The translations under genes were made by a program, and so were the position numbers. From a virus, in IMG/VR virus record IMGVR_UViG_3300032291_003063, positions 1-64,000 of that record: a stretch of DNA of 64,000 bases; one strand, given 5' to 3'. The notes under the pieces were generated by a model that had not been told where the DNA came from, made no database searches, and saw only the letters and a program-made list of their open reading frames with translations. Of this stretch, positions 29,277-41,506 are shown one piece after another (within the stretch, counting starts at the first letter, position 1; each line of letters begins with the position of its first letter).

Positions 29277-29726
29277 CTATATTTTTTTACCCCTAGCTAA
29301 ATGGTCAGCGCAGTGTGCCGCAGCAAATGCAAAGGGTTTGATTCTAGTTTCAACATAAGGAAGCGCGCTCTTAACATAAGATAAAGCCTCCTTTACGGCA
29401 ACATTAGACTTGTGCCGAGGGTTTTGGTTTAAGTCAAGGTGAATTTCTAGGTGTCGAGTGTCAATCGAGTCTAGCAGTTCTAGCGCCACATTGACCGTAT
29501 TCATAACTTCGGTTAATAGTCGCTGTTTCATATTACCATAGTCCGGTAATACTACAGTTTCGTAGAATAACTGACACCCTTTGTTAGAGTCTACGTGAAG
29601 CACTACCACCGTAGAGTACCTGGCGTACCAGCGGTTTTGCTTCTTAAATCTTACAGAATCGCATCCAATATAAACAGAGCTTTCTTTGGAGCTTTGTTCA
29701 ATGGCTTTCTTGGCTAGTTCTAACAT
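29277..29726 (-). CDS. RNase H-like fold protein (YkuK/DUF458-type)
   Basis: 149 residues. YIGCDSVRF at about residue 19 (catalytic Asp), ARYSTVVVLHVD, then EIHLDLNQNPRHKSNVAV (second acidic strand) and KPFAFAAAHCADHLARG match predicted RNase H-like DUF458 proteins. These are predicted nucleases acting on RNA-DNA hybrids; no activity is proven. The gene follows directly on the terminator of the large RNA transcript. Confidence 0.65.
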   Translation of the reverse strand: MLELAKKAIEQSSKESSVYIGCDSVRFKKQNRWYARYSTVVVLHVDSNKGCQLFYETVVLPDYGNMKQRLLTEVMNTVNVALELLDSIDTRHLEIHLDLNQNPRHKSNVAVKEALSYVKSALPYVETRIKPFAFAAAHCADHLARGKKI

Positions 29727-29728
29727 GA

Positions 29729-29761
29729 TTTTTCCTATAAAAATAGCCCCAAAATGGGGCT
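29729..29761 (-). terminator. Terminator of the large noncoding transcript
   Basis: On the minus strand AGCCCC, loop ATTTT, GGGGCT, then ATTTTTATAGG. It ends transcripts coming from the promoter at 31056-31083 and precedes the RNase H-like gene. Confidence 0.85.
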
Positions 29762-31049
29762 AATAAGTACCTACCCTGAGATTACGGGAGGTAAATGATG
29801 AGCCTTAAGTGCCTTATGGTTTAGCACCTTATCCAGTGAAGTTATATCACTATCTCATCAGAGCCGCACAATTTATATAGCGCAGGCTATAGCGCTTTAA
29901 CACTTAGATACTCGACTAGCTCTACCACCACCTGTCTCCCGACAGTTCAAAGCCGCTAAGCTCTTATGATGTGCCTTCTAATCAACACTCTTTGGCTTTC
30001 GGCCTAGGAATGACTCCATTCTTTAGTGGAGTATTTGGCTCCTTACTCTAAGTGTAGGACAAGGCTTTTGATTTTTAAACGATTAGCCGAAGCATTTCTT
30101 TTTTCCAATAAAAAGCGTCTTGTGATAGACTATAATCTGCACTTAGGACACGCTCGTCCAGTAGCTTTCAGCTCTTTTGAAGCCAAAAATGCTACGCGCC
30201 CTGAATATCGTTCGGTTTTGCATCCCTACTAGAATGTTTGATGGCTCGATGTGCTATTGCCCACCAACCCACTAAACTGGTACCCGCCCTAACCTGCTAA
30301 GCTCGGACTGAAGTACACTCGACAAGAACACTATATACCCTCAACTTATTGCAATCCATAATTTGACCTTGCGGAGTCAAAAATCATAATCTGCCCGAGT
30401 ATGACTGTCTGGTAAGCTATTGGGCTTTTACCCTCCTAAGAGAGCAGGGAGTTATTAGCTCCACGCCTTGTCTGCGTGCTTAACCCTCTTACGAGGTCGA
30501 AACAGTTAGTGCAACCGTTTCTGTCACTGTATCACTACAGCTTTCGCCGCACGCGGCAATTAGACTTTTTAAGGCACAACGGAGAATTGTGACCAAAGAA
30601 GCCTAATTAATTAGGAACTTCCCGCAAGTAGTTTTCTATTCGCTGATACCGGATATAAAGAGCCGGCCGAGTCGAACAATAAAGAGTTACCACCAGCGTT
30701 TTCCTACTAACCGGAACTGGGGAAGAGCTCATCTAAGCATACTTACTAGAACAGTAGGTTCATTAGCCAAACTGGTCGTTAGTGTGTAGAAATACTTTTA
30801 CAAGCAGTTGCTAAACCACGGTAATGTGCCTTTGGCGGGATACCGGTCTTGGAAAGCCTATTGTTTTTCATCTACTTCAATAGTGGAGTAGTTTACTGTG
30901 GTCAAGTCCCGGATAAAGGCCTTACAGAGCCGGGGGTATATTACACAAGGTCCGCTTATGCAATTCGCGGGCGAGCTACTCTAAATAGGTATTTATTAGA
31001 TTTGCCTATTTATTACCGAGAGATTGGCTTTGCAGTCCTCACTCTCAAT
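29735..31049 (-). ncRNA. Very large structured noncoding RNA (about 1.3 kb), GOLLD/ROOL size class
   Basis: About 1.3 kb bounded by a strong minus-strand promoter (31056-31083) and a rho-independent terminator (29729-29761), with no minus-strand ORF of 60 codons or more. Reading the minus strand I find many local hairpins: CTGTC-GGGA-GACAG and ACCTC-GTAA-GAGG(G)T (GNRA loops), TATAGC-CTGC-GCTATA, CACAAT-TCTCC-GTTGTG, CCTAA-TTAA-TTAGG, ACTCCA-N8-TGGAGT, CACGC-N7-GCGTG and TAAATAGG-N15-CCTATTTA. Position next to a phage tRNA cluster, length and lack of coding match the giant ornate RNAs GOLLD and ROOL, but membership is not shown. The function is unknown. Confidence 0.75.
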
Positions 31050-31055
31050 ATAAGT

Positions 31056-31083
31056 ATTATATCCGATATTTCGGAAAAGTCAA
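31056..31083 (-). promoter_or_regulatory. Sigma70 promoter of the large noncoding RNA
   Basis: TTGACT, 16 bp, TATAAT, with an A/T-rich upstream element. It is one copy of a 41-bp direct repeat whose second copy is at 31178-31218. Confidence 0.85.
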
Positions 31084-31181
31084 GAACTTTTTTAGCTGTA
31101 CCTCACGTATTCGGTACGAATGAATTCTAGAATTGCGACGACTTCGAGAGCCGGTTGGAAGTCGTATCCAGATCTTCAAGT

Positions 31182-31209
31182 ATTATATCCGATATTTCGG
31201 AAAAGTCAA
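31182..31209 (-). promoter_or_regulatory. Second, duplicated copy of the same promoter
   Basis: TTGACT, 16 bp, TATAAT, identical over 41 bp to the promoter 126 bp downstream. The leader between the copies contains a 7-bp stem (CGACTTC / GAAGTCG) and GTACC / GGTAC, so a second short RNA or a longer form of the large RNA could start here. Confidence 0.75.
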
Positions 31210-31216
31210 GAACTTT

Positions 31217-41103: not shown

Positions 41104-41137
41104 CAAAAATAGCCCTTAGCCGGGAAGGCTAAGGGCT
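41104..41137 (-). terminator. Terminator of tmRNA gene
   Basis: AGCCCTTAGCC-TTCCC-GGCTAAGGGCT followed by ATTTTTGACA on the minus strand, an 11-bp perfect stem. Confidence 0.92.
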
Positions 41138-41446
41138 TGCACTTCTGTTTCGAGGCGTGCCCGCCCAAGAGAATTAAGCCGCTAGGGCTAATTCTACAAA
41201 TGCTTCGTTATCGTTAGCATTTATAAGTTTGAACTGATTAGCGGTCGTTTCTTACCGTGTTCTCCACTATCCTATATGCCAGTCGAAATCTGGTCGCCCC
41301 CATCAAATACACCTAGGCCCGAAATCTGGCTATCCATGATCCCTTAGTCTTTCACGTTACCGCATGGCGCACGCCTAGATGTATATGGTGGAGGCGGGGA
41401 GAATTGCACTCCCGTCCTGAACACTTTACTTTCGTATCACCGAACA
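41104..41446 (-). ncRNA. ssrA: Circularly permuted (two-piece type) tmRNA, tag ANDNEAFVELALAA
   Basis: The acceptor piece comes first: 3' strand CGCCTCC, A, CCA (41386-41396) with T stem GGGAG/CTCCC. Then comes an intervening segment closed by ATACATCTAGG/CCTAGGTGTAT (41374-41384 with 41307-41317), and then the coding piece, starting GGGGGCG (41301-41295) ACCAGATTTCGACTGG. GGGGGCG pairs fully with CGCCTCC (one G-U). The tag frame at 41218-41174 reads ANDNEAFVELALAA-stop, in the style of alphaproteobacterial tags ending LAA. Its own promoter and terminator frame it. It would rescue stalled ribosomes and tag proteins for Clp proteolysis. Confidence 0.92.
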
Positions 41447-41452
41447 GTCATA

Positions 41453-41480
41453 AGTATAGCACAATATGACCAAAAGTCAA
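41453..41480 (-). promoter_or_regulatory. Promoter of tmRNA
   Basis: TTGACT, 16 bp, TATACT on the minus strand. Confidence 0.8.
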
Positions 41481-41506
41481 GAACTATTTTTCAAATAGTT
41501 ATACGT

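What the first reader, a model, noticed from the sequence alone, without database searches (positions are those of the whole stretch)
29735..31049. 1.3 kb noncoding transcript with dense hairpins (giant ornate RNA candidate)
A strong promoter and a strong terminator frame 1.3 kb lacking minus-strand ORFs but full of stable hairpins, two with GNRA loops. It borders the tRNA cluster, exactly where GOLLD and ROOL RNAs occur in other phages. It is longer than typical members of either, so it may be a divergent member or a new class. Such RNAs can assemble into large multimers.
Basis: partly seen in the sequence, partly recalled or inferred. Interest (0 to 1): 0.9.

Follow-up and report, generated by a model that had tools for sequence, protein, structure and literature searches.

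The report
Extended GOLLD giant RNA in T5-like phage
This is a GOLLD RNA, a known kind of giant phage-made RNA (one relative assembles into a hollow 14-piece cage), but this copy carries an extra folded stretch of about 490 letters at its front end that was found in only one other distinct phage lineage.

Summary
Window 31049-29744 (minus strand) is a ~1.3-kb non-coding transcription unit with a strong promoter, an intrinsic terminator and abundant structure. Rfam settles its identity: 30204-29773 matches GOLLD (RF02032) over the whole model, 174.6 bits against a cut-off of 150. The carrier is a tRNA-rich, T5-like aquatic phage; T5-like Vibrio phages also carry GOLLD.

The excess length is not a stretched GOLLD. 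Relatives show that the core, at ~785 nt, has ordinary size (30557-29773). In front of it lies a separate ~490-nt extension (31049-30558). It occurs only in this phage lineage and one relative (L004, 80% identical over the extension). It folds as its own domain, shows compensatory changes above a shuffled control, is not coding and matches no Rfam family. The nearest GOLLD relatives lack it; one (L145) has a ~75-nt tRNA-like leader in that slot.

Best reading: a GOLLD nanocage RNA carrying an additional 5' RNA domain. Membership is near certain. Cage formation is inferred from the cryo-EM of env-38 GOLLD. The extension's role, and whether it is cleaved off, are untested. Verdict: a new variant of a known kind.

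The parts
31182..31209 (-). distal copy of the sigma-70-type promoter TTGACT-16-TATAAT, inside an exact 36-bp repeat (31178-31213)
   Evidence: L004 has a single copy
31056..31083 (-). proximal promoter TTGACT-16-TATAAT; predicted start of the RNA about 31049
   Evidence: conserved in L004 immediately before the homologous RNA
30558..31049 (-). ~490-nt 5' extension: structured, non-coding, 80% identical in L004, absent from other GOLLDs examined
   Evidence: no Rfam match; no other hit in the collections scanned
30205..30557 (-). GOLLD 5' (cap) domain of this clade, shared with L004, L145 and L154
30472..30557 (-). first element of the 5' domain: invariant closing helix GCGUG/CACGC (30554-30550 with 30478-30474) around three hairpins, two with GNRA loops
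   Evidence: model R2 and pair counts; held-out L154 recovered at 54.5 bits
29773..30204 (-). GOLLD 3' domain, RF02032 positions 1-416, 174.6 bits
30075..30128 (-). variable linker of the GOLLD 3' domain (approximate; by model position it corresponds to the disordered linker 497-538 of env-38); no tRNA inside
   Evidence: cmscan alignment, ARAGORN, paper PMC12286853
29744..29762 (-). intrinsic terminator TAGCCCCATTTTGGGGCTA + T tail
   Evidence: conserved in L004
29277..29726 (-). adjacent downstream gene, 149 aa, RNase H-like family PF04308; the same gene follows GOLLD directly in L004 and L145

Best explanation
The region encodes a GOLLD RNA. It is transcribed as one unit of about 1.3 kb, on the same strand as the adjacent tRNA array, from a strong host-type promoter (present twice) to an intrinsic terminator. 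The ~785-nt core folds into the two GOLLD domains, a 5' cap domain and a 3' ring domain with an internal linker. By homology with env-38 GOLLD, it probably assembles without protein into a closed multimeric cage. In front of the core sits a ~490-nt self-contained structured 5' extension. It most likely stays on the RNA as an extra domain, so that a cage would carry many copies of it; it may instead be removed by processing, as the tRNA-like leader of relative L145 may be. Shown here: GOLLD identity, boundaries, conserved signals, non-coding status, structure with compensatory changes, and absence of the extension from the other GOLLDs examined. Inferred: transcription, multimer formation, fate and role of the extension.
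For: RF02032 over the full model, 174.6 bits against cut-off 150, E 2.3e-47; no control genome rings. Same RNA with promoter and terminator in L004. Relatives L145, L154 and L147 carry GOLLD at 161-179 bits; their homology to the window starts no earlier than alignment column 494 (about 30563), which gives the core boundary. First 5' element: 100% of cells paired, 7 of 18 pairs changed on both sides, 0 of 500 shuffles as high; the model recovers held-out L154 at E 3.5e-11. Extension: in the 31052-30470 block, 10 doubly changed pairs against 3.0 +/- 1.5 in shuffles and energy -126 against -94 +/- 6, 0 of 100. Non-coding by tblastx. Cage, cap and ring for env-38 GOLLD: PMC12286853.
Against: Covariation in the extension rests on two distinct sequences. 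The predicted start of the RNA rests on a promoter match only; no transcript data were available. The window lacks a self-complementary loop at the hairpin that I take to correspond to L21b of env-38 (GGGA here), so a contact between half-shells may be lost or replaced; that correspondence is my own reading. A 14-mer has been shown only for env-38.
Confidence: 0.72

Rival explanations
1. The extension is a separate non-coding RNA that is merely co-transcribed with GOLLD and cut off by host RNases, leaving an ordinary ~785-nt GOLLD.
For: It folds as a closed unit and is better conserved than the GOLLD cap region next to it (block identity 0.79 against 0.49). In L145 the same slot holds a tRNA-like leader, and in L147 a tRNA gene precedes GOLLD closely.
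Against: No minus-strand terminator inside the unit and no conserved internal promoter were seen; no processing signal was identified.
Confidence: 0.3
2. A wholly new class of giant RNA unrelated to GOLLD.
For: The first 490 nt match nothing known, and the 5' region does not score with a model of the main aquatic GOLLD 5' domain.
Against: The full GOLLD model matches above the curated cut-off, and relatives link the cap region to other GOLLDs.
Confidence: 0.02
3. Decayed coding sequence or a plain intergenic region whose hairpins are chance.
For: Lies between genes; a 68-aa and a 93-aa open frame exist on the plus strand.
Against: Compensatory changes, no dominant coding frame, conserved promoter and terminator.
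Confidence: 0.01

Closest known systems
GOLLD RNA (Rfam RF02032), incl. env-38 GOLLD (833 nt, homo-14-mer cage)
   Same: 3' domain over the full Rfam model; 5' cap plus 3' domain plus linker layout; phage genome; tRNA array; core of similar size (~785 nt)
   Different: Extra ~490-nt 5' extension (total ~1.3 kb); the cap domain is not detected by a model of the main aquatic 5' type
GOLLD of T5-like Vibrio phages (vB_VpS_PG07, VspSw_1, 234P7B; annotated as GOLLD in the last)
   Same: T5-like phage, tRNA-rich region, RF02032 match (176.4 bits in D386)
   Different: Weak match of their 5' domain to the main aquatic type (16.5 bits at the right place in PG07); no 490-nt extension
GOLLD of L145 (97-kb IMG/VR contig)
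   Same: Directly upstream of the same RNase H-like gene; cap homologous from window ~30563; tandem promoters of the same type
   Different: Instead of the extension, a ~75-nt tRNA-like leader; total about 0.93 kb
ROOL RNA (RF03087)
   Same: Giant cage-forming phage RNA near tRNA genes (literature)
   Different: No match in the window at the gathering score and none in the carrier record

Membership tests
GOLLD (RF02032) | Conserved 3' region scoring above the curated covariance-model cut-off over its full length | tested here: met
   174.6 bits against 150, model 1-416
GOLLD (RF02032) | Less conserved structured 5' region of about 400 nt upstream of the 3' region | tested here: met
   ~350-nt cap domain 30557-30205 shared with L004, L145 and L154, with compensatory changes; not detected by the model of the main 5' type, while DSS3_MAL1 is hit at the same place by both type models (21.5 and 16.1 bits)
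GOLLD (RF02032) | Variable linker inside the 3' region, sometimes holding a tRNA | tested here: met
   Insertion at the linker position, no tRNA in it; relatives L154 and L147 hold a tRNA there
GOLLD (RF02032) | Phage or prophage location, often near tRNA genes | tested here: met
   Virus record, T5-like terminase and polymerase, tRNA array
GOLLD (RF02032) | Homo-oligomeric RNA cage (14-mer shown for env-38) | not testable with these tools
   Known for env-38 only
GOLLD (RF02032) | Expression rises during phage lysis | not testable with these tools
   Reported in PMC12286853; no transcriptome here
ROOL (RF03087) | Covariance-model match | tested here: not met
   No match in the window against all Rfam families or in 9 related records (in that search no control rang, so it is weak alone)

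The most novel reading that the evidence does not exclude
The 490-nt extension is a new structured RNA domain carried on every GOLLD monomer, so that the assembled cage displays or encloses about 14 copies of it: a natural RNA cage with a covalently attached RNA payload or add-on shell.
Probability: 0.3. Interest if true: 0.8.

Novelty: new variant of a known kind. Interest (0 to 1): 0.5.

Why it matters
GOLLD cages were solved only in 2025 and have no known function. A member whose core is of ordinary size but which carries a large, better-conserved extra domain offers a handle on function: what the cage carries or presents may be read from what is fused to it. The comparison also shows modularity at the 5' end, where related phages put a tRNA-like leader or a 490-nt domain in the same slot, and it adds a GOLLD lineage with its own cap sequence.

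Tried and rejected
New class or ROOL: rejected by Rfam. Protein-coding: rejected by frame analysis. Relatives in annotated phages and plasmids by DNA similarity: none. Extension elsewhere: three DNA patterns in viral contigs hit only the two known contigs. One pattern in GTDB genomes hit three contigs; two gave no match to the profile of the window and L004 RNAs, and the third only a non-significant one (E 3.3). Window 5' region as the main aquatic 5' type: at most 4.4 bits in the 5' region, against 150-190 bits for held-out members of that type. Lactobacillales-type 5' domain: only a marginal nhmmer match near the 3' domain. Two classic GOLLD papers (PMC4140389, PMC7549688) are not held, so statements about them come only from papers that cite them.

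Full report
What was checked. All of that is present. The promoter TTGACT-16-TATAAT (31083-31056, minus strand) matches 11 of 12 consensus positions, is duplicated exactly 126 bp upstream, and belongs to a motif (TTCTTGACTTTT-N-TATAAT) found five times in the window and never in shuffles. The terminator at 29762-29744 is conserved in a relative.

Identity. Rfam gives GOLLD (RF02032) at 30204-29773 with 174.6 bits (cut-off 150), end to end in the 416-position model. That model covers only the 3' region of GOLLD; the literature describes a conserved 3' region and a divergent 5' region, which in the env-38 RNA form the ring and the cap of a closed 14-mer cage (PMC12286853). No ROOL match was found.

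Carrier. The window is part of a 69,962-base IMG/VR record. Terminase and DNA polymerase are closest to T5-like phages (50.6% to Vibrio phages, 45% to Tequintavirus). GOLLD also occurs in T5-like Vibrio phages, where one record is annotated as such. So GOLLD in this kind of phage is not itself new.

Close relatives. L002 is nearly the same phage (L002/L003/L007 are one contig). L004 (90% in the RNase H-like neighbour protein) carries the whole unit, from promoter to terminator, at 1.24 kb. A search with the RNase H-like family found 32 loci; a GOLLD scan of 28 of the records behind them found five more carriers. Three of those sequences (L145, and the pair L154/L155) align with the window from about 30563 onward, and a fourth (L147) from the 3' domain onward. 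This places the start of the GOLLD core at about 30557, where the motif GCCGCGUG begins, and makes the core about 785 nt, close to the 833 nt of env-38.

The cap domain. Its first element (30557-30472) has an invariant helix GCGUG/CACGC closing three hairpins, two with GNRA loops. On window, L145 and L004 all 18 pairs form in every sequence and 7 change on both sides; no shuffle of 500 does as well, and shifted controls fail. A model of this element built from those three finds the held-out L154 at 54.5 bits. It does not match the 95 other loci scanned with it, nearly all of them GOLLD carriers of other types. A separate model of the main aquatic 5' domain (29 sequences) does not match the window's 5' region (at most 4.4 bits) but matches held-out members at 150-190 bits. 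Both models hit the same place in the roseophage DSS3_MAL1 (21.5 and 16.1 bits, the second at E 0.12), so the two cap types may be distant relatives. That is suggestive, not shown.

The extension. The 492 nt in front of the core (31049-30558) were found only in this lineage and L004, where they are 80% identical. The block 31052-30470, which is mostly this extension, is more conserved between the two (0.79) than the rest of the cap region (0.49) or the 3' domain (0.59). That block has 10 pairs changed on both sides against 3.0 +/- 1.5 in column shuffles, with energy -126 against -94 +/- 6. The folding z-scores of the extension alone are -2.4 and -2.7, modest by themselves. In tblastx no reading frame stands out, and indels break frames. 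No Rfam family matches. Three patterns in IMG/VR and one in GTDB genomes gave no further copy. These scans need exact matches and would miss distant copies.

How it probably works. Shown: identity, boundaries, signals, structure, non-coding status. Inferred: a single transcript of about 1.3 kb reading in the direction of the tRNA array; folding of cap and ring; cage assembly as in env-38; the extension either as an additional domain on the cage or as a leader removed by processing. In L145 the same slot holds a tRNA-like leader (acceptor-like stem, T-arm-like hairpin; my reading, not called by ARAGORN), which favours a slot for exchangeable 5' modules. GOLLD's function is unknown in the literature; the published suggestions are encapsulation of the linker, tRNAs or ribosomes, and in one prophage GOLLD was reported to be dispensable for phage production (PMC7567579).

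Judgement. Membership in GOLLD is met on every feature tested. What is new is the extension and a cap sequence type shared by a few uncultivated phages. This is a new variant of a known kind; the strongest open question is whether the extension stays attached.

Noticed in passing
41132-41484 (-): A tmRNA gene: permuted tmRNA model (RF04321, 121.1 bits, 41446-41174) and alpha-type tmRNA model (80.4 bits) match the same place in this T5-like phage; DSS3_MAL1 also has a tmRNA next to its GOLLD.
   Followed up: no
31088-31177 (-): Between the two exact promoter copies lies ~90 nt with two small hairpins, possibly a separate short RNA; L004 has only one promoter and lacks it.
   Followed up: partly
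L145:4058-4150: A tRNA-like leader (acceptor-like AGCAUGAG/CUCAUGCU, T-arm-like GAGGUUCAAUUCCUC) at the 5' end of a GOLLD transcript behind three tandem promoters; not called by ARAGORN.
   Followed up: partly
L154:2169-2239 and L147:7834-7909: tRNA genes (Arg-tct; His with unusual atg anticodon) inside the GOLLD linker region of related phages.
   Followed up: no
29277-29726 (-): RNase H-like protein (PF04308) directly follows GOLLD in the window, L004 and L145, and in DSS3_MAL1 it lies inside the tRNA array next to a peptidyl-tRNA hydrolase gene; a possible role in tRNA or GOLLD processing is untested.
   Followed up: partly
L147:8790-8864: A predicted tRNA with anticodon CTA (called tRNA-Pyl by ARAGORN) in the tRNA array of a related phage, a possible amber suppressor.
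   Followed up: no
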